Shown in pieces: positions 3,001-60,313 of a DNA stretch of 64,000 nt. The stretch is taken from contig JAGTTD010000001.1 of NCBI GenBank assembly GCA_018398585.1, forward strand, positions 6,264,501-6,328,500. The letters are read 5' to 3'. Within the stretch, counting starts at the first letter, position 1. Each line of letters opens with the position of its first letter. The notes beneath the pieces are model-generated. The model did not search any database, was not told the origin of the DNA, and was given only the letters and a program-made list of their open reading frames with translations. Origin of the DNA: Simmondsia chinensis. Its lineage: Eukaryota > Streptophyta > Magnoliopsida > Caryophyllales > Simmondsiaceae. A program made the translations under genes and the position numbers.

Positions 3001-4483
3001 CCCTCCTCTGTCATGTCTGTTTTTGTACCTAAGAGGATACCAACACGTAAGTACCGGATCCCATTAGAACTCCGAAGTTAAGCGTGCTTGGGCGAGAGGA
3101 GTACCAAGATGGGTGACCTCCTGGGAAGTCCTCGTGTTGCACCCCTCAGGTTGGGGTTCTCGGAAACAGCTTCTCTTAGGGTACCACCCTGAAGGGGGAA
3201 GGCTGTACCTTTGTGCCCATTGGGCTTGTACTAAATTATTTTAAAAAATTGGAGTGGGAAAGGAGGTTTCAGTGCCAAGTAGAAGAGGATGCCAAATGCT
3301 GGGAGAAACCAAATTAAGGTGGCAGTAGGGCTTGGGTAGTGCTATTGCTCAGCTTGGGAAAAGAGGGAGAGATGAGACACCAACTCTTGTTGTGGACCTT
3401 GTGCCAAATTAAGATGGCGGTAGGGCTTAGGTAGTGTTATTGCATGCATCGCCCCTGTGCTCCGGCACACTATGCTGAGGAGGATGGATTACGTTTGAGC
3501 AACTACCTACTATGTGAAGGATGAGACCTTAGTCTAGTGGTGAAATACTATCACGGTTGAAGTGCTGAGGTTAGGTCCAAATCTCCATACAAATTAACTA
3601 CTCAAAAAATAGCTCTGCTGTATAGATGTCTCATAATTTTGAACTTCAATGTAACTAGTTTGTTTTTGGCTCATCTTTTTGTGCACCTAAAGTCAACGTC
3701 TTTCCTGCTCTTCAGGTGCGGATCGCGCGTATTTTCAACACCTATGGACCTCGAATGTGTCTGGATGATGGACGTGTTGTTAGTAACTTTGTTGCTCAGG
3801 TCTGCTCCAACAAATACCTGAATAATTGACTAGGCTGCTTTATGAGATTCTTCTGAGTTCTGAATTTTGGTTTTCAGGCCATTCGCAAAGAACCGATGAC
3901 TGTTTATGGTGATGGAAAGCAGACACGGAGCTTTCAATATGTCTCTGACCTGGTACGACATGATTCATCTTGCAGTGCCGCTTTTTTTTTTTTTTAAGCG
4001 AATGTAACATTTCCCACCTTTCCTGTAATCTTTATTCCCGCCTCAAATGAGAAAGAAATGTCTTGACTTTCAAAATGATTAAAACAAATTTTCGATCAGG
4101 AAGTGCAGCTGTTGTGAATTTTTTTTCTTTTAAAGGACGCAAGGTAAAACTTTAAGCATGTTGTCTTCAGATAACTTTGTCTAAAGCATTGTGGGAATGA
4201 TAATATGGAGCGCAGATGGGACATAGCTAGACCTTTGATCAGGAAATGCATCAATACAGCCACTATTAGTATCTAATTAGCCGCAGAATTACCGTCACGA
4301 AGTGTATGAGAAACATAAACATCTATTGATGGCCTTAGTATCTTCTAAAATTACATAGTGCATCGTACAAGGGAATTAGATTTTCCCTCGGAGGGCTTGA
4401 ATTACTATTACATTGCTTAACATACATATTTCAGAATGGGATACAATACAATATGTAAATTTTATATATATATATATATATAT

Positions 4484-4515
<32 letters not shown>

Positions 4516-5415
4516 CCAGGTCAATGGACTGGTGGCGTTAATGGAGAGTGAGCACATTGGGCCTTTCAATCTTGGCAACCCCGGAGAATTTACTATGTTG
4601 GAGCTTGCTGAGGTTTGTCTTTGCTAATTTAATCCCCATAGTAATATAACTTTACATCACCTTATTGGACTCAGGTGTATTGAGTATAAAATCACTTTTT
4701 CGGCCTAAGCTTAATTACTAAAGCTCCTAAGATTGTTGGTTCTTTGACATTGTATCGACGACTCTTTGACTAGGGAATCTCAAATCCAATTCTTTATGCC
4801 CCATTTTGATTATCAATGTAACTTCACATATAGTGTGATAAGCATTCGTGTGGCTTGTCTACGCATTAAGTTTAATGGGCATTTTCCTATTACACGATGG
4901 GGCATTTTCCTATTACACGATGGGGCATATTGGTGTATAATGAAACTAGTCTCGCCCAATAACTTAAAACCTTTAAGGTAGTTGGTGGTAAAAAGGTCAA
5001 CCTTTAGGCTCAACCGAAAGGGTAACTAGTGATAGACGATTGGGAGAGACAGAGAGGGGAATCGAGTTAGAAATGGGTTGGATTCGCATAGCCCCAATGT
5101 GGCGAAATAGAATGATTGGGTTGACTATGCTAATAAGATTTTGATTGAAATAGTGCGGAAGAAATTTTGAACACTGGTGATGTCATTTCTCAATTCTCCT
5201 AACGTGTTTCAAAGGTCGAGTGCGCCACAAGAGGCCCGGGAAGGTTCCCCATCTCACAGCTCACCTACTAAATTTTATGTTATATCTGTAAATGCTTGTT
5301 TGGCTAAACGGTAAAAAAATTACTTCTTTTAGAAGCAACTTTTGCTAAAGTACTTTTGTAAAAAGTATTTCCAATAAGGGTACATTAGTTTGAAGAGGGA
5401 AGGCTGCGTACATCG

Positions 5416-5448
<33 letters not shown>

Positions 5449-6476
5449 AAAAGGCCCTACGTAGGCGGGAGCCCTTGAGGCACTGAGTATGTTCCTCTAA
5501 TTTGAAATTTTTCTAATTTTTACTTTTACTTCTATTTTAAAAGAGAGGCACTATTTTCCTATTTTTAAAAGTGAAGAAGCAATTTATGCTTCTATGTACA
5601 AGTACAGCAACAACAACAAACCCAATGCCTCAAGGGCTTCCACCAATGGCAGGGTCTTTGAGGGGTTGTGAGATATATGCAGCCTTACCCCTTCAGTCCC
5701 CTTCAAGGTGCTACCCTATGAAAAAGCACTATGCTTTTCTGGGTGAACTCCCTTGAATTCAAAAAAAAAAAAAAAAAAAAAGGTGTTAGTTTTCTCAAAA
5801 AAGAACTTTTTCCTAGAAAAAAGCTTGACCAAATGGGCCCTAAGTGAATGTCTAGCAATAATTGGTGTAAATGCCTATTTGTCCAAGTTGCAAAAAGCTG
5901 CTTTTTTTAGAATTACCTTTTGCAAAAGCACTTTTGTAGAAAGTGGTTTCAATAAGGGTACATTAGTTTGAAAATTTTTTTATGTTTGCTTCTACTTCTA
6001 TTTTAAAAGTGAAGCACTATTTTTTCTACTTTTTAAAAGTAGAAAAACAACTTGTGCTTTTATTTAGAAGCAATAATATTCTTCCCCAGCCAAACTCTCT
6101 TGAATCCAGAAAATGTGTTTTTTCCCTTCAAAAGAAGCACCTTTTTTCCATAAAAAAAGCTTAACCAAATGGGCCCTCAGTGAATGTCAGCGATAATTAG
6201 TCAAGTGAGTAATGAACTCCGATTCTTGATCTCTGTGCTCACAGACAAAATCCTCCATTGAAACAGGTTGTGAAAGAGACAATCGATCCGAGTGCAACTA
6301 TAGCATTCAAACCGAACACAGCAGATGATCCTCACAAAAGGAAACCAGATATCAGCAAAGCAAAGGAGCTCTTGAACTGGGAGCCTAAAGTGTCACTTAG
6401 AGATGGACTCCCTCTTATGGTTGCTGATTTCCGAAACCGGATTTTGAATGAGGATGAAGGTAAAGGACGCAAGTGA
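1..6476 (+). CDS. UXS: UDP-glucuronic acid decarboxylase (UDP-xylose synthase), 3' seven coding exons; 5' part off-window
   Basis: Converts UDP-glucuronate to UDP-xylose, the donor for xylan and xyloglucan; an extended short-chain dehydrogenase using bound NAD. Coding exons that splice in frame: 1-99, 532-679, 774-853, 3716-3799, 3878-3952, 4520-4612, 6267-6476 (stop TGA); 789 nt, 262 codons plus stop, against roughly 420-450 residues for the whole family, so the N-terminus and the GxxGxxG NAD motif are missing. Visible family blocks: [28 protein letters not shown], the catalytic YxxxK as [52 protein letters not shown], and a C-terminal [19 protein letters not shown]. The longer tail ([11 protein letters not shown]) resembles the Golgi type II membrane isoforms more than the shorter cytosolic ones; that is an inference, since the membrane anchor is not in view. 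No frame break is seen. All introns are GT-AG except the first, which is AT-AC. Confidence 0.95.
100..531 (+). other. U12-type (AT-AC) spliceosomal intron of UXS
   Basis: Protein homology requires the exon to stop after AAG ACG ATC (91-99) and resume at AAG ACA AAT (532), giving the invariant KTIKTNV junction. The intron between them begins ATATCCTTTT (100-109), the U12 5' splice-site consensus. It ends with the branch-site consensus TCCTTGAC (515-522) about 10 nt before a terminal AC (530-531). No GT-AG pair gives the correct junction. Length is 432 nt and phase is 0. Confidence 0.93.
854..3715 (+). other. Large UXS intron 3 (2.9 kb)
   Basis: GT-AG intron bounded by GTAAGT at 854 and TTCAG ending at 3715. 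It is AT-rich and non-coding, apart from the 5S-headed SINE at about 3031-3213 and a weak tRNA-like stretch near 3529-3600 (A-box-like TAGTCTAGTGGTG, degraded B box). I see nothing else recognisable. Confidence 0.7.
3031..3213 (+). mobile_element. 5S rRNA-headed SINE, 3'-truncated copy 1
   Basis: The head is nearly a 5S rRNA gene: CCGGATCCCATTAGAACTCC, then AAGTTAAGCGTGCTTGGGCG (box A region) and GATGGGTGACCTCCTGG (box C), then GAAGTCCTCGTGTTGCACCC. The SINE body follows (GGTTCTCGGAAACAGC..., CCCTGAAGGGGGAAGGCTG) and stops before the usual (TTG)n tail. The short repeat TGTACCT on both sides may be a TSD but is weak. It sits in UXS intron 3. Confidence 0.85.
5395..5502 (+). mobile_element. SINE 3' fragment (copy 2) with a 29-bp poly(C) tract
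   Basis: Contains GGGAAGGCTGCGTACATC, a run of 29 C at 5418-5446, then GTAGGCGGGAGCCCTTGAGG and CACTGAGTATGTT, i.e. the 3' body of the 5S-headed family without its head. The flanks GTTTGAA / ATTTGAA look like a short imperfect TSD, supported by the empty site in the neighbouring duplicate. Confidence 0.75.
5592..5733 (-). mobile_element. SINE 3' fragment (copy 3), minus orientation
   Basis: Reverse-complement tail AGCAACAACAACAAACCC, then AATGCCTCAAGGGCTTCCAC and GCAGCCTTACCCCTTCAG. This is the family 3' body and TTG tail on the minus strand, with no 5S head. It is an independent insertion in the first copy of the duplicated intron repeat. Confidence 0.75.
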
Positions 6477-13000: not shown

Positions 13001-13470
13001 GAGAACTTGTCGAAGCTATCACTGGGGCGAAGAAAGGTGTTAAAATCTCCAAGGAGTAGTCAAGGGGTCCCTTGGAGACTAACACTAGCAGACCTGATAT
13101 AACACCATAAATCACGACGCGGTCCCGGTGCATTAAAACCGTAGACAAAGGTAACAGCGAAACTGTAATCCCCACGAACATCCTAAACCCGACAAGTAAC
13201 AAATTGGTCTCAACTCCAAACAAGAGAGATAGAATAAACTCCCAGATCCCGACAAACAATAAGACGACACCAAGATCGAACTCCAGCAACCCCAGCATAG
13301 AGAGAGACCAACCATCCACACAACTAGAGATAGCAGACTCAACATTAGCAAGATTGGTCTTAGTCTCCATAAGACCAACAAAGTCAAGAAAGTGGGAGCG
13401 AATCCACTCCTGGACAACGTGAATAGAATTGGGGTTGGTAAAACCCCTAATATTCTAGGAACCAATCATC
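10040..13470 (-). pseudogene. LINE ORF2 relic: endonuclease, reverse transcriptase, zf-RVT
   Basis: Minus strand, broken into several frames. The endonuclease (about 13470-12700) shows GLMETKTN near 13370, whose Glu is a metal ligand in this family. The reverse transcriptase (about 12168-11280) shows DRAPGPNGYSS, VYKFITKIIANRLKGVLL, ALKVDIRKAFDTVRWDLV and the active-site block LCFADNLMIFCRGD, where the usual FADD has become FADN, removing one catalytic Asp. A thumb/connection-like region lies at 11225-10584 (SYVGRLQLIRSVLFSIQVYW). The C-terminal zf-RVT (10343-10146) has FVLWLAAYERLSTRDRL and CVLCGAEDESHHHLFFAC. A 20-bp poly(C) tract (12887-12906) lies in the endonuclease part. Confidence 0.92.
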
Positions 13471-17796: not shown

Positions 17797-20590
17797 ATGG
17801 CGCCTGCAAAAGGTATGCAATTCGCGCTGCTTTTGCTTCGACTCGTTAAACTTAGTAGTTTCCTTTTGATGAATGTATTTTGTTTTCTTTTGATTTTGTC
17901 CTTGATTTCATGATATAGCTTAGTGTAATTTGCTGGCCGAATGGTTCGGGAAGTGGCAGTTAATGTCATTTTGAGCGTTAAAGATCTGTGCAGTAATTTT
18001 GATTACATAGTGATTAAATTGAAGTACAGTTGAAGGGATAGACTCGTAAAATAGAAGGTAAATTATGTATTTGTATTCTGAAGTTTGGTTTAGTAATTTT
18101 TTAGTTTATAAACTTTATGAAGTAATTTTTTTAGTCTGAAAGTTATATATTTTAATAAAATTGTTCAAATGATGGTAAATTTGTAGTTATTTATCAGTAA
18201 ATCCACCAGCCCTTCAGTATTCTCTTCATCTCACATCCGAACAATAATATTGTGATACTGCTGATGAAAAAGAGTTGGATGGAAGGCCTATTTTACTCCC
18301 GTACACATTGCTATTTGGACTATTGTGTTATTTATATGTTACTTTTGGACTAAAATGTAATTTCACAAAGTTCGTGGTATAAAAAATTAATATACCAAAC
18401 TTGACAATATTGATGCATGATTTACCCTAAAACTTAGTATATTTTGGTTCTATTTGATTGAAGGAAAGATATTTTCTTTCAGTAAATACTTCTAAGAAAT
18501 ATTTGCTTTTTTTTTTTTTTTAAATTTTCTTTTGTCTGGTTTATAAATTGAATTTTATGATATCAATTTGTATATAATTGCTTTTCTAAAAGAGCCTCGT
18601 GCAGGAACTTTAGTAGGTCCATTTCCAGTATTTAGATTTGATCCATTTCAGAATAAAGTTATGTTCATGATTTATGATTAATAGGTAAAAAGCCTCCCAT
18701 ATATGGAAGAATGTTTTCCCCTTTTCTTTGAGAGAAGGTCAAAGGAAAACCTTTTCTTCTAATTTACAATTGCTAATCATTCATTATATGGAAGGAATAA
18801 AACTAGGAAGAAATAGGCTCCTCCATAACCAAACTGCTCAGAGTGTCCCGACGTGTTATTTTTTATGATGTTGAGCTTTGTACTGTGTGAGGTTGGTGAT
18901 TGCAGTGTATATTTGTGGGGTAAATGTTTTGCGGTAATGTATTTTGGCCCCATTGTGTTAATTCAACTCTTATAGAGATGTTGTAAGTTTTTGTTAGATG
19001 GTGGAATAATTGAGTATATGGTTGCATAACTACCAAAGGGGGTACCAACATGCCGTCACCGGATCTCATTAGAACTTCGAAGTTAAGCGTGCTTGGGTGA
19101 GAGCTGTACTAAGATGGGTGACCTCCTGGGAAGTCCTCATCCTCAGGTTGGGGGGCACTCGGACACAACCTCTCTTCAAGGGTAATACCCTGAAGGGGGA
19201 AGGCTGCGTACATTCGCCCCTCTTAGACCCTGCTCAGGCGGGAGCCCTTGGGGCACTGGGTATGTTGCTCATGTTGCTCGTATGGTTGCATAACCACGTT
19301 CATGGTGAGCATACCACTGTCGTTCAATGAGTCTTTCTTCAAAGTATAGAACCTATCTTTACATACCCTATAATTTGTGGCCTTCATGTAGAATTTGAAA
19401 TCCCAATGGACTTTCACTAGCATGTACTTATCTGCATTTTGATGTTGGATGAGTGCTGCTGGTCTTCTGCTATTTTCTATTCAAAATATTTGTCGACGTA
19501 TGAAATGTGAATTATGGGAGTCATTATGAATGTGCAGCTGACCCTACAAAAAAGGCTGACCCGAAGGCCCAGGCCATGAAGGCTGCCAAGGCAGTCAAGT
19601 CTGGTTCAACAACCTTTAAGAAGAAGGCAAAGAAGATCAGGACAAAAGTTACATTCCACCGGCCCAAGACATTGAAGAAGGACAGGAACCCCAAGTACCC
19701 ACGCATCAGTGCACCACCCAGAAACAAGCTTGACCACTACCAAATTCTGAAGTACCCCTTGACAACTGAATCAGCAATGAAGAAGATCGAAGATAACAAC
19801 ACTTTGGTCTTCATTGTGGACATCCGAGCTGACAAAAAGAAGATAAAGGATGCTGTCAAGAAAATGTACGATATTCAGGCTAAGAAAGTGAATACCTTGA
19901 TCAGGTAAATGCTGAAGCTTCTAATTTCTCAGTCTTCCTCTGGTTTATTCTATACTTATTGATCTAATTACGGATATATTGCCTTTCTGCCTTGTGTTTA
20001 GATGGATTTAGCTGCCTTTCTTGTTTGGTTAAGCTTTTTGTACTGAATTTGTCATTGTTTAACAGCTCTGGCATGTATATACTTGGTTAATGTAGTTGAC
20101 ATTAGTACACTTAGTGGGTTTGGTACTCAGGCTTATGTATATCTTTGTTAGTGTTCACCGTTGATTCGAATTGAGGATGTTATATAATGTAACAATAGTT
20201 GCCAGCTATGTGCTTTCCAATGAACTTCTGTGAAGGCCTGTAGGATGTAAGTATGCTATGTTCTGTTCGCAAATATCTACTTTATAAATGTTTATATGTT
20301 GAAAACAGTATTGAATTTAATCAATATAAGGCTAAATAGCGACTCATGTTGCTTAGACTAAACCAATGGGATCGTGGTGATGACCACGAACCACAATTAG
20401 CCAAGCTCCAAAAGGCTTGATGAAATGCAATGGCATCCTTTTTACAATTCTAATCGATCTTATACTTTCTCAACTTACGTGTTCTATTTTGAATGGCGTT
20501 GACAGACCTGATGGAACAAAGAAGGCATATGTTCGATTGACGCCAGATTATGATGCCTTGGATGTAGCCAACAAGATCGGAATCATCTAA
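17797..20590 (+). CDS. RPL23A: 60S ribosomal protein L23a (uL23), three coding exons
   Basis: Large-subunit protein that binds 25S rRNA near the polypeptide exit tunnel and helps dock SRP and other nascent-chain factors. Coding exons: 17797-17812 (MAPAK plus one base), 19538-19904 and 20506-20590 (stop TAA), all with GT-AG introns; 468 nt, 155 aa, the expected length for plants. It has a Lys/Ala-rich basic N-terminal extension, then [60 protein letters not shown] and the C-terminal [20 protein letters not shown]. The ATG context (AAAATGGC) is good, and the tiny first exon split from the body is common in this family. Intron 1 (1.7 kb) carries a MITE and a 5S-headed SINE, yet splice sites and frame are intact. 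The promoter has site II and telo-box motifs. Confidence 0.97.
18057..18429. mobile_element. MITE-like foldback in RPL23A intron 1
   Basis: The left end GGTAAATTATGTATTTGTATT and right end ATGATTTACCCT form inverted repeats. Inner matches are TTTTTTAGTTTATAAACTTT on the left and a complementary 'ATACCACGAACTTTGTGAAAT' type arm on the right. The same end sequence occurs in the TRM intron (29957-30358). TSD not fixed. Confidence 0.5.
19031..19280 (+). mobile_element. 5S rRNA-headed SINE, full-length copy 4, in RPL23A intron 1
   Basis: 14-bp TSD TATGGTTGCATAAC at 19017-19030 and 19281-19294. The 5S head keeps GAAGTTAAGCGTGCTTGGG (box A) and AAGATGGGTGACCTCCTGGG (box C). The body has CTGAAGGGGGAAGGCTGCGT and CAGGCGGGAGCCCTTGGGGC, and the tail is GGGTATGTTGCTCATGTTGC. 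It shares orientation with the host gene. Confidence 0.92.
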
Positions 20591-22084
20591 GATGATGCAT
20601 CGGAGCCCTACTGCTTGGAGTTGTAAGGTGTTATGGGGGTAGTGTATCATTATTTCAGTATGAAATGAACATCCAGTGTTTGAAGAAGAGTATTTTAGCA
20701 TTCTGAAGACTGGCTGCTGTTTAGTTACAATTTTTTGACGGAGTTTTTGGGAATTTTAAATCTTTTATTGGTAGGAGATGAGTTCTTTCTCTTCTATTTT
20801 GAAGTTACTATAGTCTTAGCATGAGAGTGTTTTGGCTTTTACAAGGCAATGTTGGGAGGGAACTTCAAATGCATGTCAGATATGGCATCAATTCAATCTC
20901 TTATAGAGATATGCTGATGTGTCAAATCTGGCACCTTGAAACCGTCTCAAATAGGATCCCATATCGTGTGAGATAGTTATTGCTTTGACAAAAATTATTA
21001 TTACCAAAGTCATGATGTGACTTATAAATGCCTAATTATGTTTGATTTTTTTTTTTTTTCAAGGCATAATGGGGATTTGAGGTCTAAGGGAGCAGAGGAC
21101 GGAGAGTGAAGTTACGATTTCTTTTTCTTGTTCTTCTTTTTAAGCAAAGTTATAAATTTTTCTGGATAATTTTATTACTATTTTAATTACAATTTTTAAT
21201 TTTTACCCATATACCCAATTGTCAAACAAATGCAGTTCGTTTCCTCTTCTTGACATTGATTTGGCTTTTTTCAACCACATTTTTCTTGTCTATCATAATT
21301 TTATCTAGAAATGATTTATTTAAAATTTTTTTTACTCTATTAGTTAAGATGAAATAACTTTTTAGTTTAAAAATGGACAAATAATATTATCTTTTTAGTC
21401 CAAGTTTTTAAACACTCAAAATACCATCGTCTCTTCCATCTTTACCCTAATGAGACGTCCTCACCTTTCTGACATTGCTCTGCTCGTCAAAATCAGCGCC
21501 AGACCAGTAGTCCTGACCCCTAATGCCCATGAGACTGGACCACTGACAATGAAACTTACCCACTCACCCAACTCCTATCCCGTCGACACCAACTGACATC
21601 AACACTGACGCAACTTGTTGAATTGATAGCCCCTACCTCCGGTGATATTTTGTAGCTATGTTCAGATCTAGAATAATGATGGAATGGGATTAAGATTTTG
21701 TGAGATGTTGGTGCAAAATCGATGGCCACCTTGTGACAAACCTCCAAAACAGAATCATAGCGATGCCAATGGTGCCTATGCATGTGGTGGCACCATCGCC
21801 TACGTGCTACCAATAAGAACCAGTGAACTAGGTGGTGAATGTCAACTCCCTCCGTTTTTGTCTCCCTCTTTCCCTCTTTCCCTTCCTAATTTCTCTATCC
21901 CTTACTCTTACAAGATACTACCTTATAGAAAGATAGTTTTCGGAAAGTCCTTAACCTTAAACTGAAACTAGACTCCATCAAATGAAAACAAACATATCTA
22001 ATGCAAATAGGCAACCATGCACTATTTAAGCCAAATAAAACACCAACAGTAACACCTAAGTTCTATTTCCTAGCAATATTTTTA
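20591..22084. other. RPL23A 3' UTR and intergenic DNA
   Basis: The RPL23A 3' UTR should cover the first few hundred bases. From about 21000 the sequence is AT-rich with poly(A)/poly(T) runs and no gene. The open stretch at 21684-21965 has no recognisable product. Confidence 0.5.
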
Positions 22085-22160
22085 GTGTCCTAAAGGCTCC
22101 CACCTAAGCAGGGTTTGAAGAGGAGGGGGGATGTACACAGCATTTCCCCTTCCCGTAATT
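22085..22160 (-). mobile_element. SINE 3'-body remnant (copy 5)
   Basis: GGCTCCCACCTAAGCAGGGT and GATGTACACAGCATTTCCCC match the reverse complement of the family 3' body. No head, tail or TSD. Confidence 0.55.
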
Positions 22161-22380
22161 TCTGCACCTTTTCCTCTAATTTTAGCTATTTTTATAAAAA
22201 AAAATTGGTTCATAACACATGGAATTAGTAAGGTTTTTAATATATAGAGTACATATTTCAATTGCTATCAGATGGGTAATGTAAGGTGTTTCCCAGGACC
22301 CTGAACACATAGTAAGCTCTAATACGTAATTAATTACTAATTTGACCCACACTACAAGCAAATGGATCTAAATTAAAATA

Positions 22381-22554: not shown

Positions 22555-22823
22555 AGCAACAATAATAACAATAAACTCAATGCCTGAAGGGCTCCCGCCT
22601 AAGCAGAGTCGGGGGGGTGGGCAAGAGAGATGTACGCAGCCTTACCCCTTCAAGGTATAACCCTTTCGAGATGCTATTTCCAAAGACCCCCAACTTTATA
22701 GGGTTAGCAACACAAAAACTTCCCAAGAGGTCACCTATCCTAGTATTATTTTTGCCCAAGCATGCTTAACTGTGAAGTTCTAATAGGATTCAGTGCATTA
22801 GTATCTGATAAAGAAACCCTACT
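22555..22823 (-). mobile_element. 5S rRNA-headed SINE, full-length copy 6
   Basis: 13-bp TSD GGTAGTTAAAAGC at 22542-22554 and 22824-22836. On the minus strand the head begins with a 5S-like 5' end (GATACTAATGCACTGAATCC), followed by AAGCATGCTTGGGC-type box A sequence, then the body and a tail seen as AACAATAATAACAATAAA on the + strand. More diverged than copies at 19.0 and 55.9 kb, so probably older. Confidence 0.88.
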
Positions 22824-23512: not shown

Positions 23513-26500
23513 CTAAATTACAACTGCTTCTGCTACTAAATCCTCTAACAATATATTCTCTATCTCCCTACCAATGGTATCGATGTCGTCTCCCAACTCC
23601 AACCACCGCGTTCTTTGCACCACCTCGTCTATGGCTTCCCTCGGTGTGCTCGTTTCACAGCTAGAAACGCACTTCTCCAACTCAGTTCTCAGCTTGTCTT
23701 TCTTCCACCTAGGGCCCAAGCACCTCGTAACGGGTCCCACCCATGGGTATGGGTCATGAAACTTCTCCAAGATCTCTATTATCCCGGAATTTATCCTGTC
23801 AAATAGGAGTTTCCGTTCTGATCTTGAACCCCATACCTCATCCAGGTATCTCTTCTCAAGTTTTTCAAAAATCAAGGGGTCGACAGGGCATTCCAGGGAG
23901 TGCCAGCTGGCCATAAACAGATCAGGGTCGGTTTCATCTAACCCGGAGTGGATCAGCACGTTGAACAAGTAAGTCAACTCCCATTTTTCTTCAGATCCAA
24001 GTAACCCATTACGTTCAGAAAGGTGAGGACATACTTCGGCGTTTTCTTCGTCACTAGAGATAAGCATGGATGCTTCATCATAAGCTTGAGATTCTTGTTT
24101 CAGGAGCTGTAGTTGTAGTCTCAGGCCTAGCAGTAAAAAAAAAAACCAAATTTACCCATAGCAAAGAAAATATAGTCATAGCCGTAATCTAAAGAATTAA
24201 ACGCCTTATTGCACAAGCGACTAATTTTTCATGCAAGTTCTAAAATGATGGCACAACGTACATTGGGAGTCATGATCCTTATTATCTCATCTAAGACACG
24301 CAACAACTGTAACCTTTACTTCAGAATCTTGATGCCTCAAAACCTCATCCGTTACTAATGCCTTTATTAATGGAGAAAGTGAGATACGGCCCGCCACTGA
24401 TGGTGATTGTTCTAGTCCAGCAAGTAAAATACCTTAGGTTACTACAGTGTAATTTACCCAAAAGTATACCTTCCCCGTAACGAATCCTACGTAAAACATC
24501 CCAAAATTCATCCTAGTCCAGCAAGTTTCGCATCAATGAAGCCCCACTCAAACAGCCAGCTTCTATCGAGAAGACTGTACCGTATTTCTTTAACTTCCAC
24601 TTTAACTATTTGAGCAACAAAGTTGACCTCCTTTTTTTTCGGGTTAGGAATGAGATTTCCTAATCAAGATAAATAGAGTTCTTTGCAGCAACAACAAAAA
24701 CTTTCCCTAGTTGGTTATATATTTAGGTAAAAAGTGTTGCAATAGTCTAAATCTTATGTCATCATGCATCTCAAAATTTTTTTAGTCTGATTTAGAAGCG
24801 GAGATCTATAAGAGACCAAGCCCGATGAAACTTATATATCGAGCTGGGTTAGTATGCCTGATTCTTCTAGGATTTGCTATCTGTTGCTCTCTCTATATAT
24901 TTTTTTGTGGACTTTTATCTAGAAAGAGTTGGCAAGCTTCTTGTATCCTCCATTCCATATGTAGTGAAAGTTTTTATCCTTCTGCCCGTAGTTTTTTTCC
25001 CTCAATTGAAGGTTTTCCACGTAATATGTTCTCATTTTTTCTCAAATCTACAAATTGGTATCTAAATCGACCCAAATCTTGGGTATTTTTCCTAACATCT
25101 TAAGTGGGCTATGGAGAAGTAAATCAAACTAAAAATCATGGCGTATGCCAGCCATAATACTACTACATGCAACAGCATAGATCAGCAAGCAATCCATGAA
25201 AGAGCAGGTTTAATGCATCAAGCACGAAAAAAGAACTCCAATATAGCAAAATGAAGGGCAAAATAAAATGGAAAATGATGGCTTCTTACCATGAAGCTCA
25301 GCACTGACTCTCTCGAAACATTCAGAACCAGATGAATTATCTTCAACACAAGGAGCTTCTAAAACTGAAACGGGACTCGGCTGGTTAGCCTCCTTACTGC
25401 TCACTGGAGATTCTGGTTGAGTGGCAGGGCAATGCGACCATGCAGAATCTTCTCCATGATATCTGGCTGAACGTTCCTGAAATATCGCATCCACCATATT
25501 TTACAAAGAGAATGATCATGGGGTTTAAAAGGGGGCACGAGCAATGAAAACGTACCAACTATCCTGATAAACTGATAGGTATTGATGACAATAAAGGATC
25601 TTTTTACAAAAAACCACTTTCAAAAGCATTCATTTTTTACTTAACTAACAATAACAACCACCTTCCCGTGCCAGATTTCACTTAACCACCACAAGTTTTC
25701 AAATTTTCAGAAAATCACCTTGAAAAGTTTAAATGTTTTCAATCAACCACCCCACATTAACGCCCTTAGCATTCTGTTTGAGTTAAACATGTGACTTTGC
25801 TTAGGTTAAATATAAAATCAAGGAAAACTTAATACATGTCACTTTTAGCTCAGTTGGTAAGTTCTATACATGCACATGCTCGAATATTTGTAGACACGGG
25901 CATGAAGTGAGATTTGAACCTGCATATGGAGACTAATTAAGCATATAATTTTTTTCCAAGCAAGTTAGACGCCATGTATGTTTATCTCCCTATTTTTTGT
26001 ATAAAAATATGTAAAATTATATGTGTAATCACAATGGAAAATTAATGATGTTAATGTAGCTGTTAATAAAAAAAAAATTAAATATTTGAAAGTGGTTTTC
26101 TAAAAAAATTAAAAAATTGTTTTGATTAAGTGAAAATTGACTATTTTTAATGGTGGATTTTTGAGGAAAAAACCAAAAAAAAAAAAAAAAAAATTCCATA
26201 TCCCAATGATCTTAATTTTGAACAACCAGTAAAAGATCACGGACTCGAACGTCGTATGGCGCCCAAAAACATTACAAACAGATCAAACTATCAGTCCATG
26301 TCGCATATGATTAGTTCTACCATAAATGCAACACGATCAGAAGTTAACTGTTGATAATCATGTTCACTATGTAAATGCTAGCCGTCCTGCATATTTTGCT
26401 CAGTCAACTCAATAAGGACTCTGCACAGGTTGACAAGATGATGCAACAACGGCTGCAAGTTTGATTAACACCACCCAAGTTAACTAACATGTGTCGTCAC

Positions 26501-29500
26501 CAGTTCATTATTAATTGATTCATACATTTAATAAGCTCAAGCAGGCAAGTCTACATTAAAGCCACCATGTGTTACAAATGTTGACAATCTTGATATATAT
26601 GGTTATTAAGTAACATAACTTACGCAGCAATGAAGAAAGTTGCAGAATTTAAATATAGCACCCACTAACTTCCAGTCACAGGTCAAGCATACCGCAAGGC
26701 ACCTTCCATCAACCAAACCCAATGCAACTAACCTAGAAACCTCGTTTAGAATAGGAACAAAACTATCATTCAGTTGAGGTATTCCCGATCTATTTTGATA
26801 TACTCGCATTTTATCCTCACTTAAGCAATCACATCATGACCTAAAACCCAATTATGATCAGTAAGCTGTGGAGTTGTATAAACAAAGAAAGGGTGGTATT
26901 TAACTAATAACGAACAAAAAGAATGGCATTCAGTTGGCAGCATAAATGTCAAAGTGGAATGCACAGAAAAATCAAGATTTTAGCAGTGGGAAAGCGATAC
27001 ATTAGAAAGATCATAAAAACTGCAACTAGTTCTTCGTTATACTTAAAACTTTCAGGAATAAGAGGGTGGGGGGAAGGGATGAGCGACCAACTGACCAACT
27101 AGGTGACACAAACGTATATGTTGTAAGCTCCGACAAGGATTACCAACACATAAGCCAGAATATAATGCCCTAGGAAGATGAATAACGTGCTTTGGCTAAC
27201 CTTAATTACCTGTTTCAAGTCGCAAGAGGAAGAACCATCATGTAGGACATCAGCAGTTAACTCCGGCTTTGGGCTCAATCTGTCAGGAAACTTTAGACTG
27301 TCAGAGCCATTTGATTGCTCTACATCATCTGCTGTGTTGGGGTTTAAACTTGCACCCACACTTCTAGACGATGTCTCCAGTATTACACCTTTTACATCTG
27401 GTGAATTCCCTCCATCGAAGACTTTCTGCATTTCCTTCCCACTTAACTGGGTTTTCTCAATATCATCAACCATTTGCCTATATATATCAACAGATGACTT
27501 AGAGTGCTTATGTCCAGATCTTGTTCTCCGAGAGGATGATCCTCCTTCTTTATAAAAATCCCTTTCCTCCAACTTCTTTCTCTCCCGACCTATGGCCTGT
27601 TTTTGAATTAGGTGTCTTTCAGCAGCAAGAGCTTCATGCCTCTTGTTGGCTTTCGGAGTTCCAAGATGGTTAGAAGAAGCTGGAAGAGACCTAGAACGTG
27701 ACAAGACTTCGATACACCCCTCTTTCCAGCCATCTCTACTGCTGATACCCAAAGGGGATATCCTACCAACTGTTTCGTCAGCTCTGCCAAGTCTACCAAA
27801 CGATTTGTCAGCCACAACTGTGTCAGAGTTTACTGGCCTCATGTCCACATCGGGAATTGCAAGCATTTCACCCAGTGTGCTGCCCTTAGCACCCATTCTC
27901 GCCTCCTGAGATCTCTGAGTCATCTTCCACCTCTCAGACAGTCTTTTTTTGGCCTCCCTACTGACAGATGACTCTGCATTACGAGGGGCTGAAGATTTGG
28001 AAAGTTTGTTTCGGACACTAAACTTCAAGGGTGTGACCGATCCCACTTCCGCAGCCTCTGATTCATAAGATGAATCATTTCCTGACAATTCATGGGAACT
28101 TTCATCCGCTGAGTATCCTTGATATCCAGACAGATCCAAAGTAAATGAATCCTTGCCTAATTTACTTCTCATTTGACGAGTGATTTCTCTAGCCAGCTCT
28201 CTAGATTCTCGAGATTTATGTTCACATATTTCCAGATCATTAGGTAAGCTCTTTTCTTTTCCCATTTCTGACTTTGGTTGCCTGATATTTGTTCTTCCCT
28301 TATGAAACTCAATATCTAACTGGTCATTAGAAGAACTTGGGGATGAAATAGATTTCGGAAGCACATGTCCAACATTTGGTTTCAGAACAACAATCCTGTT
28401 TGGGTTCGAACTAAAATATTCCTTGCCTTCAGCAAGAATATCATATGGATCGTAATGATCTTTGCCATTTCTATACTGGAAGTCGCTGTGATGGCCACTG
28501 TGATGCCTATGAGAAGAGCTGATATCAATCTTCTGTGAAGCTTCCCTGCCTAGCTGGCTCCCTATGGCATCAATATTATGCTTTAAAGCATTCGATGCAC
28601 TCCTACTGCGAACATGCCTGCAGTGTGATTTTGGGGTACCATGCAGATCATTCAGGTGCCTTGCAAACAATGAATCAGGTTCCTGAAGAAACTTCAGCAA
28701 AAGATCTTTGTTAGAATCAAGCACCTCAAGGGCATCATGAAATTCCTTGGAATCCTGAAACTTCTCATCAGTGGAAAGCCGCTTCACATCCATGAACTTC
28801 TGTCTTATGAAAGCCATCTCGTCCCGACTACCTTTTAGGTTCGGATCAACAAGATCTGGGTACCTGCCAGCTTCCATTCTTGAACAGTCTACAACTTCGT
28901 ACACATCCTTAAAGTACTCTTGCTCCTTCACGTTCTTCCTACGTGATCGGCTATCATATAGCTTGGTACCTTTGTGATGTCCAGCTGGTTTTTTCTGTTG
29001 GTAGTCATCCGGGTGTCTCTTCTGCTGTTTGATATTTTTATGCTGAGGAGGCATCCCATCAAGACCCATCAATTTGGCAATAATACTTGGAGGTTGTCTA
29101 CTGTATAGGGAATCTTTTGTCAACTCATCTGCCAATAGCTTCTTCATTTGGGTGCTAGCTGGAATTTGCAAATCACTTCGTCCCAAGTTATAAGTGAGCT
29201 ATAACACCAAGATGTGACATACCATCAACAACATTTCCAAAATTAGAACTTCATAAATGGAAACATAAAGAAGTAGTGATATCTCGCCACTATTCAGTAA
29301 TTTATTACCTGATCTTCCTCTTTAGTTATGTAACCACTTCCACAACCAGAATCAAATGGCACTTTCAAATAATTGTTGCTTTCTGCAATCAGCTGGTTAA
29401 CTACAAACAGATACAAACAAAAACATCACCCATCACATCAAAAGGATTCATATGCAATTTCAAATCCGAAGCGTCAATTTCAGCATAAAAAAAACCATAA

Positions 29501-31130: not shown

Positions 31131-31900
31131 TACGGGAGCAAATAAGCCGAATTAGCTCACGAGACAAAACTCAAAAGGTTTAGTCTGCTTTGAGTTTGAG
31201 CCAAACCAAGCCTGAGTCTAGTGAATCTTGAACTCATAGGCTCACGAGTAAGGTTAGTCTTATCATTTTCAAGGCCCCAAACGAACCTTTAAATGAGGCC
31301 TTTCGTATACAACAAATTATAACCATAAAATTTCGTAATATTAACAATTGATACTTTAAAAATTAAAAATCCTGAAATTTCGGGCTCCAAGCTATTGCTT
31401 GGGTTGCTTGGATTATGTTCGGCCCTACTCACGAGCCTAAGTGAATCTTTCTTAATATAATATACTAACATAAATATGACCAATCGAGCCATATTCACTT
31501 ATTATGCTCTTTACGCTTATCAAGTTGGGGGTCCTCAAAAACAACTTCTCGTCAGGGTATCATCCTGATGGGGTAAGACTGCGTACCCTCCCGGACCTTG
31601 CTCATGTGGGAACCCTTGAGGCACTAGGTCTATTGTTGTTGTTGTTTAGCCATATTTGAGCCTAGATAAGCAGAGCCTAAGTTTAAACAAGCCCCAACGA
31701 GTATAGATTGAGCTTAAAAGAGCCTAAATATCTCAAGTTTAATTAAAAACTTGTCGAGCTTAGACCAAGTTCAACCGAGCCGAATTGAGCCAGAGCCTTT
31801 GACAAGCCAAGCTCGAGCTTGAACTTTCGAAGCTTGTCGTGCTTAATGCGAACAAACAAAGCCTCAAGCCTGGGAATTCAGGCTCAACTTAGCTTAAATA
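31131..31900. repeat. Decayed GAGC-rich repeat
   Basis: Many short GAGCC/GAGCTT/AGCTCG words, the composition seen in hAT-type MITEs of plants and again at about 33380-33660, 47640-47880 and 50003-50400 here. I could not fix the ends. Split by a SINE piece at 31496-31647. Confidence 0.45.
31496..31647 (+). mobile_element. SINE body copy 7 (no recognisable 5S head)
   Basis: Body GTTGGGGGTCCTCAAAAACA, CATCCTGATGGGGTAAGACT, GGGAACCCTTGAGGCACTAG, then TATTGTTGTTGTTGTTT. Short TSD AGCCATATT at 31487-31495 and 31648-31656. Confidence 0.7.
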
Positions 31901-32530
31901 CACTCATAGGAGTGACATCATTAAATTTTTCTGATAATATTTTTTATCATGGTAATAACAACACCTTTTCTTCTATATATGTTTGTAAGTATCTTAAAAG
32001 AATTCTGATGTGAGTGTAATAAAAAAAAATCTCATATTCTAAGTTGTGAAAAAAAATGAGATTAATATATAATTTAATGAGCTATTTCAACTAACGCTAA
32101 TTAAATTTAGGATGAAACTTCCATTTTTATACATGTAAGCTCCGTGAAACAAGCTTAAGATCCAATGATATTTCACAAAGAACAATATAATTTTCCCCCC
32201 TTGGTAGGGACACCAACTTTCCGAAAATTGAATGAGTATTGAACCTAAAACCTCTTACTTAAATGATTAAAAATTAACCGTTGCACTTTGTGCATTATTT
32301 CAGAGAGGACGTCTTGAAGAAGTATTTGATAATTTACTCGTAGCTGAGATCAATAGAAGATCATTTATGTTTAATTTTGAGGGCTTGTTAGGTTTAACAA
32401 ACTAAAGAGTGTTCAATAAGTTCAACAAGTTCATTTGAATAGTGGTGTGCCTAGCATGTTGAAGTTCATGAACAAATACAGAATTGTTAAGGTCTCATTA
32501 ATGATCCATTAAGAACTATGAGCTTGTTCA

Positions 32531-33343
32531 ACAATAACAACAATAACAGTCCCAGTGCCACTGGAGCTCCCGCACGAAGTAGGGTCTGGGGGGGTGGATG
32601 AACGCAGCCTTCCCCCTTCCGGGTGGAAGAGAGGCTGTTTCCGAGAACCCCCATCCTGAATATTGAGTCGTCATGAAAACATTGTAGCTTGGAGACCAAG
32701 GAAGTCACAAAGCATTAGCTTAGGACACTGCGTTAAACTAGCAGTATACAATATACCCCACAGAAAGCAACTACAAGGCACATAGTAAAGCAAATAGTAC
32801 ATGGCCAATAATAGGCAAATAAATCGGGAAGCAACTAAACAACAGACAAGTGCACTACCTGGGGTTATGACTGCCTAGAAATCTTAAACTACCAGTCACT
32901 CGCCGAACTACTCTACGCTACACCTTCGCTACCCCCATACTAGCCCTCCATCGCGCTCTATCTAAGGCCATCTCCTCTCTTAGGTTTAGGTGGGTTAGGT
33001 CATGTCGGATCGTCTCCAGCCAACTCTTCTTTGGCCTGCCCCTCCCTCTTCTATCTAGCGTAGTATGTAGCTGTTCACACCTCCTAACTGGAGCTGTGGT
33101 CGGTCTCCTGCTAACATGTCTAAACTATCTCAAGCGGTGCTCTCCCAATTTATCATCAATCGAGACTGCATCTAATTTATCTCTGATTACATCATTCCTG
33201 ATCCTATCATTCCTAGTGTGACCACACATCCAGCGCAGCATCCTCATCTCTGCCACCTTCATCCGCTGTGTTTGATGTAGTTTCATTGGGCGACACTCTG
33301 CCCCATACAACATAGCAGGTCTCACTACCATTCCTGATCCTAG
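32531..33343 (-). mobile_element. 5'-truncated RTE-clade LINE whose 3' end is the SINE body/tail
   Basis: Bounded by the 11-bp TSD GAGCTTGTTCA (32520-32530 and 33344-33354). The minus-strand protein relic (33343-about 32890) reads RPAMLYGAECRPM, VAEMRMLRWMCGHTRNDRI, DDKLGEHRLR, then after a stop RRPTTAPVRR-like and RGRGRPKKSWLETI, the conserved C-terminus of plant RTE reverse-transcriptase proteins. The 3' UTR follows. The last ~135 nt (32531-32665) are GGGGGTTCTCGGAAACAGCC, AAGGGGGAAGGCTGCGTTCA, GGCACTGGGACTGTTATTGT, i.e. the same body and TTG tail as the 5S-headed SINEs. Confidence 0.85.
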
Positions 33344-33354
33344 GAGCTTGTTCA

Positions 33355-44564: not shown

Positions 44565-44770
44565 AACATACCCAATGCCTCAAGGGCTCCCAACTACGCA
44601 GGATCTGGGGGGCGGATGTACGCCGCCTTCCCCTTTCAGGGTGTTAACCTAAAGAGAGGTTGTTTCTTATTGTCCCTAACCTGAGGGTGAGGACTTTCCA
44701 GGAGGTCACTCATCCTAGTACTACTCTCGTCCAAGCAGGCTTAACTTCGGAGTTCTAATGGGATCCGGTA
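44565..44770 (-). mobile_element. 5S rRNA-headed SINE, copy 8
   Basis: Minus strand. The head, read as its complement, is AACTTCGGAGTTCTAATGGG and AGGAGGTCACTCATCCTAGT; the body ends in ACCCAATGCCTCAAGGGCTC. It is flanked by (TA)nAGG on both sides, a TSD-like repeat inside a TA microsatellite, so exact ends are approximate. Confidence 0.82.
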
Positions 44771-44917
44771 TATATATATATATATATAAGGTTGTAGCTC
44801 TAGGTCTCCTTTCGACGACTAATGAGGTTAAGCATTTCCCGTGTTTGTTTAGTTTAATTTTAGTTGAATGGTTAGGTCGTACTAACTGTGTGTAGACAGC
44901 TAAGCATTTTCCTTATA

Positions 44918-44963: not shown

Positions 44964-45110
44964 TGGTGTGGTTAGTAATAAAGTTACTTCTGGAAGGAAA
45001 GGTTGGGAAGTCTAAAGCAATCTACTTTTCTCGTTGCTCCAAACACCATCATCAATTTTCTACCCACTAAATGTGCTTTCTAGAATTTAACTTGATGCTA
45101 TGTACTAGTA

Positions 45111-45365
45111 GAGGCTTCATTTACTAGGCACTAATACACCAGATTCTATTAGAACTCTAAAGTTAAGCGTGTTTGGGCGAGAGTAGTAATAGAATGGGTG
45201 ACCTCTTGCGAAGTCCTCCTGTTGCCAACCCTATAAGGTTGGAGGTCCTCAGAAACAGCCTCTCGGCAGGGTTACACCCTGAAGAAGTAAGGCTACATAC
45301 ATCCACCCCTACCAGACCCCGCTTATGCGGGAGCCCTTAAGGCACTGGGTCTGTTGTTGTTGTTG
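45111..45365 (+). mobile_element. 5S rRNA-headed SINE, full-length copy 9
   Basis: 15-bp TSD TGCTATGTACTAGTA at 45096-45110 and 45366-45380. The element starts at a 5S-like 5' end (GAGGCTTCATTTACTAGGCA), has AAAGTTAAGCGTGTTTGGGC and AATGGGTGACCTCTTGCG, the body GAAACAGCCTCTCGGCAGGG, and the tail GGGTCTGTTGTTGTTGTTG. This copy shows that the whole 5S coding region from its 5' end forms the SINE head. Confidence 0.93.
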
Positions 45366-45394
45366 TGCTATGTACTAGTACAAGCTGAATGATT

Positions 45395-56245: not shown

Positions 56246-57640
56246 TTAAATGATGGTTTTGAACAATTGGTATAAAAACTAGTTTAGCTACTAGAAGCTC
56301 CATTTCACTTAAAATATCAAGGGCATACTTCCGTTGGCTTAGCACCAATCCATCTCGAGACCGAGCCACCTCAATTCCAAGGACATATTTGAAAGGTCCT
56401 AAATTTTTAATTCCAAACTTATTATCAAGTTGGGATTTCACCTTCTCAATATGTTCCAAGTTATTTCCGGAAATAATAACATCATCAATGTAGATTAAAA
56501 TGGCGGTGAAAACCGCACCACCCTTATAGGTAAACAAGGAATAATCAAATTTAGACTATGCAAAACCCATATTTGTAACAAAATGCATAAATTTCTGATT
56601 CCAGTTCCGAGACGTCTGTTTAAGTCCATAAAGTGATTTACGAAGACGATAAACTTTATACATGTGTTTCTTTTCAAAACCTAGAAGTAATTCATATATA
56701 TCTCCTCATCTAAAATCACCATGGAGAAAGGCGTTATTTGCATCTAATTGATGTATTACCCAATTTCTAGCTGCCAGGACTGCAAGTACACAACAAACAG
56801 CCATGAGCTTGGCAATAGGAGCAAAAGTATCATGATAGTCTATACCTTCAACCTAAGTATAGCCTTTAGCAACTAGTCATGCATTGTAACGTTCTATGGT
56901 ACCATCTGATTTGTACTTGATCTTATACACCCATTTAGAATTAATGGCACACTTCCCTAGTGGTAATTCTTCTAGTGTCAATGTCTTATTTTGTTCTGAC
57001 ATTGAAATATCTTTTTCCATTGCTTCTCTCCAATGCTGAAAGCCTACTGCCTGAGCAAAATTTTGTGGCGCATCACTAGAAGTGATGGCTTGAAGCAAAT
57101 TCGAATGAGAGTTAGTAAACCGTGAATTAGACACAAATTTTGATAAAGGATAGATTGTGCCTGAGTCAACTGATGAAGGGGTAGCACGAGAATGGGCTAT
57201 AAAAGAAGGAACATCAACAATATATTCTTGATATTTAACAAGTATTGAACAAACACGACTCGGCCTTCCCAAACCCGCAATCCTCTGCCTCTCGTCCACA
57301 CTGTCCCGACTGAATAGTGTTTGGTCACTGTTCTAATCGAACTATCAACAACATCATCGCTCGACGGTGTTGCACTTTCCAGTGGCGGATCTTCCATTTG
57401 AACCTGAGACACAACCCCATCATCAACATGGCAAATCAAATCAAAAACATCATTGCAAGAAACATTTTGTTCCTTTCCCTCAAGATACGGAAACTTGTTT
57501 TCATGAAAAATTACATCACGAGAGATAACCAATTTTTTGTTGTCTAAATCATAGAGCTTATATCCCTTCTTTCCACTCAAATAACCAATGAAAACACACC
57601 AATTAGCTCAATTTCTAAATTTATAACTATTACGATCTTT
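56246..57640 (-). pseudogene. Copia reverse transcriptase relic
   Basis: Minus strand: the N-terminal RT block includes FQHWREAMEKDISMSEQNKT, then LEELPLGKCAINSKWVYKIK and YKSDGTIERYNA (57060-56880). The active-site block AILIYIDDVIISGNNLEHI (near 56500) has a Y-x-DD motif, and KYALDILSEME follows. The reading breaks at the hAT insertion and picks up again on the far side with one TSD copy omitted. Internal stops are present (near 56880 and 56700). Confidence 0.88.
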
Positions 57641-59604: not shown

Positions 59605-60313
59605 TGTAAAATTTCACCAGGTCTCTTTAGACCCGACCCACGAAGTTGGAGCAAATAAGGTCCACATACAAGCCCAAGTGGGGTTCCATCCCAAAACTAA
59701 TTGGCAATAGATGGAGTAAACCATTATACTTATAAATTGTTCACTTCATTCTCACGTGAGTCTATTTTAAATGCACCGGTCACCTTCATCTATCCAACAT
59801 ACTGGAAAGGCCTTTGGACCACCAACACAAATACACCCCTCTTTCCAAGGACACAGTGCGGACAAAAAAGAGTTCGAGATCATAAATATTTATAGAACTA
59901 ATGGGTTACTCCATTTGTAAAAATTTAGACTTACAACAACAACAACAGATCCAATGCCTCAAGGGCTCCCGCATAAGTAGGGTCTGGGAGGGGTGGATGT
60001 ACGCAGCCTTACCCCTTCAGGGGGTAACCCTCCCGAGAGGCTGTTTCTAAAGACTCCCAACCTTATAAGGTTGGCAACACAAAGACTTCCCATGAGGTCA
60101 CCCATCATGGACTACTCTCACCCAAGCAAGCTTAATTTCGGAGTTCTAATGGGATGCGGTGCTTGGTAAATGAACAAAATTTAGACTTAACAAGACCAAA
60201 ATAAATATTTTAGGATAGACATTATAACTTGGAGCACCAAACACAAATGCACCCTTCTTTCATCCAACAGGCTTATAAATCAATCTCTAAGTGTTCTAAT
60301 GTTCATCCATTAG
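59605..60313 (-). repeat. A-type copia-associated repeat (LTR/leader-like), right copy, with a SINE insert
   Basis: Begins TGTAAAATTTCACCAGGTCT next to the degenerate primer site, and aligns (diverged) with 50935-51269 up to about 59919. The SINE at 59934-60175 splits it, and it then runs to the LTR at 60314. Probably part of the 5' LTR of the copia element to its left. Confidence 0.5.
59934..60175 (-). mobile_element. 5S rRNA-headed SINE, full-length copy 11
   Basis: 14-bp TSD AAAATTTAGACTTA at 59920-59933 and 60176-60189. On the + strand the tail reads CAACAACAACAACAGATCC, the body GGTAACCCTCCCGAGAGGCT, and the head complement ATTTCGGAGTTCTAATGGGA. Inserted in copia LTR-like DNA. Confidence 0.9.

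What the first reader, a model, noticed from the sequence alone, without database searches (positions are those of the whole stretch)
45096..45380. A plant SINE family whose head is a 5S rRNA gene
Copies at 19031, 22555, 45111, 55880 and 59934 are bounded by 13-20 bp TSDs, begin at a 5S rRNA-like 5' end, and keep the 5S internal Pol III promoter (box A AAGTTAAGCGTGCTTGG; box C GATGGGTGACCTCCTGG). About 120 nt in, they switch to a non-5S body and a (TTG)n tail. Further copies or fragments lie at 3031, 5395, 5592, 22085, 31496 and 44565. 5S-derived SINEs (SINE3 class) are well known in animals; in plants the 5S promoter is best known from Cassandra TRIMs. I am not aware of a well-described plant 5S-headed SINE with this body, but I cannot search.
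Basis: partly seen in the sequence, partly recalled or inferred. Interest (0 to 1): 0.9.

Follow-up and report, generated by a model that had tools for sequence, protein, structure and literature searches.

The report
Plant SINE with 5S rRNA head
In this plant DNA there is a family of small jumping elements made of a copy of the 5S ribosomal RNA gene, used as their switch, fused to the tail end of a larger jumping element that probably copies them; such 5S-headed elements are known from animals and a fungus, but I found no report of one in plants.

Summary
Seven copies in the window carry a 5S rRNA head; all seven reach Rfam's 5S threshold, each followed in the same orientation by one shared body. 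Five of the six that keep their 3' end have perfect or near-perfect target-site duplications abutting head and tail. They are not Cassandra LTRs.

A 5'-truncated LINE lies at 32531-33339(-). It has its own 15-bp TSD (one mismatch), the C-terminus of a plant reverse transcriptase, and a 3' end matching the body (nhmmer 1.6e-24), closing in TTG/TTATTG repeats.

Best explanation: a two-module SINE, full-length 5S (type 1 Pol III promoter) joined directly to about 125 nt of an RTE-like LINE tail, mobilised in trans by that LINE. Pol III transcription, the RTE clade and the template-switch origin are inferred.

5S+RTE SINEs exist in animals (Ped-1, springhare). I found no plant case in the held literature, but subscription papers and Repbase were not searchable, and the genome search did not complete. 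Verdict: real; new variant of a known kind; interest 0.66.

The parts
45096..45110 (+). 5' target-site duplication of the reference copy, TGCTATGTACTAGTA
   Evidence: 15/15 with 45366-45380
45111..45235 (+). 5S-derived head of copy A45111 (from 5S +1 to the 5S 3' end)
   Evidence: cmscan RF00001 45111-45229, 48.8 bits; 99 of 119 matches to recalled plant 5S
45236..45365 (+). LINE-derived body and (TTG)n tail of copy A45111
   Evidence: body profile 45235-45362; sequence
45366..45380 (+). 3' target-site duplication
59934..60175 (-). 5S-headed SINE copy A60179, TSD TAAGTCTAAATTTT, (TTG)n tail
22555..22819 (-). 5S-headed SINE copy A22821, TSD 13/13 (16 of 17 extended)
19031..19280 (+). 5S-headed SINE copy B19031, TSD TATGGTTGCATAAC
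55880..56115 (+). 5S-headed SINE copy B55879, 20-bp TSD
44565..44775 (-). 5S-headed SINE copy B44795, 5' end lost in a (TA)n tract; low-complexity TSD
3025..3210 (+). 5S-headed SINE copy B3025, best-kept 5S head (104 of 119 to recalled 5S), 3' end lost
32531..33339 (-). 5'-truncated copy of the partner-type LINE: RT C-terminus (frame with one stop), 3' UTR, body-homologous 3' end, TTG/TTATTG tail; TSD TGAACAAGCTC(C/A)TAG at 33340-33354 and 32516-32530
32538..32658 (-). 3' end of that LINE, homologous to the SINE body
   Evidence: nhmmer E=1.6e-24, profile positions 2-127
5393..5504 (+). 5'-truncated body copy; the target paralogue at about 5925-6010 lacks it (empty site)
31521..31641 (+). body over profile positions 2-127 without 5S head, possible 9-bp TSD AGCCATATT
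5608..5745 (-). body fragment
22068..22164 (-). body fragment

Best explanation
This is a 5S rRNA-headed (SINE3-type) SINE family in a flowering plant, probably of the order Caryophyllales. Shown: each complete element is two modules joined directly. One is a full-length 5S rRNA unit, from +1 to its 3' end, carrying the internal box A / IE / box C promoter. The other is about 125 nt homologous to the 3' end of a LINE, with short TTG-type terminal repeats in subfamily A. Shown: insertions are flanked by 13-20 bp TSDs, some copies are 5'-truncated, and a LINE with the same 3' end and a TSD of its own sits in the same window. Inferred: RNA polymerase III starts at the 5S +1 using the type 1 promoter and reads through to a downstream T run. 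The LINE's reverse transcriptase/endonuclease then recognises the shared 3' tail and inserts a copy by target-primed reverse transcription. Inferred: the LINE is of the RTE clade, and the family was born when reverse transcription of LINE RNA switched template about 125 nt in, onto the 3' end of a 5S rRNA.
For: Rfam 5S matches in 7 of 7 headed copies. By eye, TSDs abut 5S +1 within about one base in 4 of the 5 TSD-bounded copies (for 22821 if the 17-bp TSD is taken); the fifth, 60179, starts a few bases off, with a deletion in its 5' arm. Promoter boxes match recalled plant 5S in 250 of 273 cells against 403 of 560 for the rest of the head, Fisher P=1.5e-11; the lowest stretch is the 5' arm, 120 of 203. 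No TTTT in 5 of 7 copies; in 60179 the run lies in the TSD overlap, and only 22821 has an internal TTTTT. The LINE at 32531-33339(-) has RT C-terminal pieces with 622 homologues at E<=0.001; all named ones among the 120 listed are from plants, several are called reverse transcriptase, and 6 of 120 carry PF00078. Two of three fetched relatives (P0147, P0209) show the FADD motif upstream. The body profile built only from 5S-headed copies matches the LINE end over positions 2-127, the same span as in complete copies, at 1.6e-24. LINE similarity starts at the 5S end (TCAGG) in 3 of 7 copies (B3025, B55879, B44795). A paralogous empty site exists for the truncated copy at 5393. T is enriched 6-16 nt upstream of TSDs, 31 of 55, P=0.0014, as reported for plant RTE-clade insertions (PMC13295347 passages). 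Table 3 of PMC3747384 gives (TTG)n/(TTGATG)n ends for 7 of 7 flowering-plant RTE families and non-A repeats for 0 of 233 L1 families.
Against: No transcript evidence. The T-enrichment interval was chosen after seeing the flanks, n=5. The LINE copy is decayed and only 809 nt, so its endonuclease and clade were not tested. In 4 of 7 copies the LINE alignment starts upstream of the 5S end (SINE positions 70, 72, 103 and 106); I take this as chance extension. Subfamily B tails are not (TTG)n. The body hairpin has no two-sided change in 5 pairs and 500 of 500 shuffles pair as well, though it pairs in 90.9% of cells against 39-60% when slid; folding is no better than shuffles (z -0.53 and 0.17). Only one window was seen; the genome search did not complete.
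Confidence: 0.92

Rival explanations
1. The copies are fragments or solo LTRs of Cassandra TRIMs, whose LTRs carry a 5S segment.
For: Cassandra is the known plant 5S retroelement (PMC10853983, PMC10886601; passages read), and the head could have come from a Cassandra 5S region.
Against: TSDs of 13-20 bp abut the unit itself, while the TRIMs described in PMC10886601 make 4-5 bp TSDs. No two headed copies in the same orientation lie within about 10 kb (coordinates). The body is a LINE 3' end. No Cassandra sequence was available for a direct alignment.
Confidence: 0.02
2. Independent 5S retropseudogenes or one-off chimeras, not a family: the LINE machinery joined 5S RNA to its own tail many times.
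For: 5S joined straight to a LINE 3' end is what template switching makes; the B3025 head is close to recalled 5S (104 of 119).
Against: All 7 share at least one change from the recalled 5S (ATTAG for ATCAG), and the subfamilies share derived features (B: 5' arm in 3 of 4, GTGTTG deletion in 3 of 4; A: 5' arm and the stretch before GGTTGG), with 70-86% identity over the element. That needs descent from common source elements.
Confidence: 0.04
3. The element took its 5S head by insertion of, or recombination with, a 5S gene or Cassandra 5S inside a pre-existing tRNA-headed TS/Au-like (Angio-) SINE, rather than by template switch onto LINE RNA.
For: TS SINE in tobacco has a tRNA head and the same kind of RTE tail (PMC3747384 passages); plant SINEs are said to shuffle promoter modules (PMC10853983 citing Seibt 2020; that paper is not held).
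Against: No stretch between 5S and body is left over in the alignment, ARAGORN finds 0 tRNAs in the window, and LINE similarity begins at the 5S end in 3 of 7 copies. But an old remnant could have been erased.
Confidence: 0.3

Closest known systems
Ped-1 SINE of the springhare (5S rRNA head, BovB = RTE-clade LINE tail)
   Same: Two-module plan: 5S promoter plus RTE-clade LINE tail (listed so in Table 1 of PMC3747384)
   Different: Rodent, different LINE; independent origin (inferred)
SINE3 class (zebrafish SINE3, lepidopteran HaSE3) and the 5S rRNA-related SINEs of Aspergillus fumigatus
   Same: 5S-derived head (PMC3747384 and PMC10886601 passages; abstract of PMC5063351)
   Different: Animal or fungal; zebrafish SINE3 has a CR1 tail; no plant member seen in the searches
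TS SINE of tobacco / RTE-1_STu LINE of potato
   Same: Plant; 3' end of about 100 nt shared with an RTE-clade LINE; TTG repeats (PMC3747384)
   Different: tRNA head with boxes A and B, not 5S
Au / Angio-domain SINEs
   Same: By recall only: similar 3' motifs (AAGGCTGCGTACA..., a GC hairpin before the end)
Cassandra TRIM
   Same: Plant retroelement using a 5S promoter
   Different: LTR element; 5S lies inside LTRs; short TSDs (recalled); moved by LTR-retrotransposon machinery

Membership tests
SINE (non-autonomous non-LTR retroelement) | Short, non-coding, flanked by variable TSDs | tested here: met
   236-265 nt and TSDs of 13-20 bp in the 5 TSD-bounded copies; longest open stretch in any of six frames of 7 copies is 67 codons
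SINE (non-autonomous non-LTR retroelement) | 3' end shared with a LINE | tested here: met
   LINE 32531-33339(-), body profile positions 2-127, E=1.6e-24
SINE3 (5S-headed SINE) | 5' end derived from 5S rRNA with box A, IE, box C | tested here: met
   RF00001 gathering score in 7 of 7; boxes 250 of 273 cells against recalled 5S
SINE3 (5S-headed SINE) | Transcribed by Pol III from 5S +1 | not testable with these tools
   only the match of the 5' ends to +1 and the conserved boxes
RTE-tailed SINE group | Partner LINE is RTE clade | tested here: inconclusive
   plant RT C-terminus, many named relatives from Solanaceae; TTG repeats fit the RTE row of PMC3747384 Table 3; no phylogeny made
RTE-tailed SINE group | Tn-TA insertion signature | tested here: inconclusive
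   T-rich 6-16 nt upstream, 31 of 55, P=0.0014 post hoc; TSD starts with T in 4 of 5, TA in 3 of 5
Angio-SINE superfamily | 37-bp Angio-domain at the 3' end | not testable with these tools
   the defining paper (10.1111/tpj.14567) is not held; resemblance is from recall
Cassandra TRIM | 5S inside paired LTRs, PBS, PPT, short TSD | tested here: not met
   TSDs of 13-20 bp abut the unit itself; no same-orientation pair of headed copies within about 10 kb; PBS and PPT not searched for

The most novel reading that the evidence does not exclude
This is the first plant SINE3 family: an active or recently active lineage in Caryophyllales born by an RTE-clade reverse transcriptase switching from its own RNA onto the 3' end of 5S rRNA, the plant counterpart of the springhare Ped-1. 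It supplies the class of element that has only been postulated as the source of Cassandra's 5S promoter. Structural plant SINE finders that require tRNA boxes A and B would pass over it.
Probability: 0.5. Interest if true: 0.78.

Novelty: new variant of a known kind. Interest (0 to 1): 0.66.

Why it matters
[quoted passage not shown] The structural step of the plant annotator AnnoSINE uses SINE-Finder, which looks for tRNA boxes A and B; a later step does compare heads with 5S rRNA but discards candidates nearly identical to Rfam RNAs (PMC8825457 passages). So 5S-headed plant SINEs are easy to miss. Cassandra is speculated to have begun by a SINE3 inserting into an LTR (PMC10886601); a plant SINE3 makes that idea directly testable by comparing head sequences. 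The same window also holds a partner-type LINE, so a matched SINE/LINE pair could be put to a retrotransposition test once a full-length LINE is found. PMC3747384 counted only three such pairs in flowering plants in 2013.

Tried and rejected
Rejected: Cassandra fragments (TSD and body evidence); a box-B remnant at the start of the body (considered from memory of Au SINEs; dropped once the body was found in the LINE 3' end); a conserved structured 3' domain (fold_alignment gave 1 of 17 pairs with a two-sided change; the hairpin alone 0 of 5, with 500 of 500 shuffles at least as high, though it pairs better than slid versions; fold z-scores -0.53 and 0.17); L1 as partner (the RVT_1 fragment near 11494-12216, looks L1-like by eye; its tail was not compared). 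The long-distance direct repeat at 5726- (14/14) belongs to a neighbouring repeat pair, not to a SINE TSD.

Age: TSDs differ at 1 of 80 positions while copies differ by 14-30%. I do not read this as youth with confidence: TSDs are found because they match, and 90 of 154 departures from consensus are C>T or G>A, which methylation would speed up in the GC-rich element.

Full report
What was checked. The window is plant nuclear DNA. ORFs at 27099-29198(-) and 23513-24151(-) carry DUF3741/VARLMGL and DUF4378. The best named homologues of the first are from Chenopodium, Spinacia, Bienertia and Silene at 45-49% identity (the two top hits are unnamed), which points to Caryophyllales; the species is not known. 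The DNA collections here are of viruses, prokaryotes and plasmids, and the own-genome search was busy on all 16 tries, so the DNA evidence is one 64-kb window.

The family. One profile made from the 7 headed copies finds 12 loci. cmscan independently calls 5S rRNA at 7 of them and nowhere else in the window at gathering score; a lax search adds no further 5S. Five copies are bounded by TSDs of 13-20 bp. The head starts at 5S +1, within about one base by eye, in 4 of these 5 (for 22821 if its 17-bp TSD with one mismatch is taken); in 60179 it starts a few bases off, with a deletion in the head. Two subfamilies exist. A (22821, 45111, 60179) keeps the 5S 3' end and ends in TTG-type repeats. B (3025, 19031, 44795, 55879) has another 5' arm (lost in 44795) and, where its 3' end survives, other tail ends; 3 of 4 lack GTGTTG near the 5S 3' end. 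Pairwise identity is 70-86%.

Promoter. Cells from related copies are not independent, so the P value is a guide. Promoter kept and flanking arms lost is the pattern described for Ajax and lepidopteran SINE3 (PMC10886601 passages).

The body is a LINE tail. On the minus strand at 33364-32918 lies the C-terminus of a reverse transcriptase, one frame with one stop. It has 622 homologues at E<=0.001, of which 120 are listed; the named ones are all plant proteins, many from Solanaceae, also apple, grasses, orchids and sunflower, and 6 of 120 carry the RT domain PF00078. Two of three fetched homologues (P0147, P0209) show the RT FADD motif upstream. This LINE copy begins at 33339 and ends at 32531, bounded by a 15-bp TSD with one mismatch. 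A match that good somewhere in the 7.4 kb searched occurs for 51 of 2000 random anchors, so it is its position, 25 nt from where the RT frame opens, that makes it convincing. The body profile from headed copies alone matches the LINE 3' end over positions 2-127, as far as it matches complete SINE copies (E=1.6e-24). In pairwise alignments LINE similarity begins at TCAGG, right after the 5S, in B3025, B55879 and B44795; it begins a few bases earlier in B19031 and A22821, and well inside the head, weakly and with many gaps, in A45111 and A60179. I take those extensions as chance.

Mechanism. Shared 3' end with a LINE, TSDs, 5'-truncated copies and one empty paralogous site (its TSD is weak) are the marks of target-primed reverse transcription in trans. 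T-richness upstream of TSDs (31 of 55; 30% background; P=0.0014) resembles the Tn-TA signature of plant RTE insertions (PMC13295347 passages), but the interval was chosen afterwards. Flowering-plant RTE LINEs are reported to end in (TTG)n or (TTGATG)n, and L1 LINEs in (A)n or nothing (PMC3747384 Table 3). The direct joint of the complete 5S to a mid-UTR point of the LINE fits a template switch onto the 5S 3' end; promoter exchange in an older tRNA-headed SINE remains possible.

Novelty. Ten literature searches showed 5S-headed SINEs in animals and one fungus, and Cassandra in plants, but no plant 5S-headed SINE. I saw listings only, 20 of 25, 20 of 1172, 11 of 11, 3 of 3, 6 of 6, 20 of 63, 20 of 8136, 25 of 41, 2 of 2 and 15 of 23 papers, and read passages of seven: PMC10853983, PMC10886601 (plus one section), PMC3747384, PMC13295347, PMC9033089, PMC8825457, PMC11490119. 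A 2022 review says plant SINEs derive from tRNAs (PMC9033089). The 2024 Cassandra paper, naming retroelements that took up genic promoters, gives SINEs in animals as its example (PMC10853983). The key plant SINE papers (Seibt 2020; Nishiyama and Ohshima 2018, the latter's DOI from memory) are not held, and Repbase was not available. Hence 'new variant of a known kind', with about even odds that it is undescribed.

Noticed in passing
   Followed up: yes
5393-5504 (+) versus about 5925-6010: Truncated SINE body inserted into a local repeat whose neighbouring copy lacks it, giving an empty site; the insert holds a run of about 30 C.
   Followed up: partly
1233-1447 (-): Sub-threshold match to plant U3 snoRNA over its full model length (52.4 bits, cut-off 80), probably a U3 pseudogene; best flanking direct repeat 7 bp.
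   Followed up: partly
10584-13454 (-): Broken LINE, L1-like by eye, with a reverse transcriptase piece (RVT_1 in 11494-12216).
   Followed up: no
56877-57332 (-): Fragment that looks like a Copia-type polyprotein (by eye; no Pfam hit).
   Followed up: no
all 7 headed copies: 90 of 154 departures from consensus are C>T or G>A, as expected of methylated, silenced elements; strongest in 22821 (27 of 37).
   Followed up: partly
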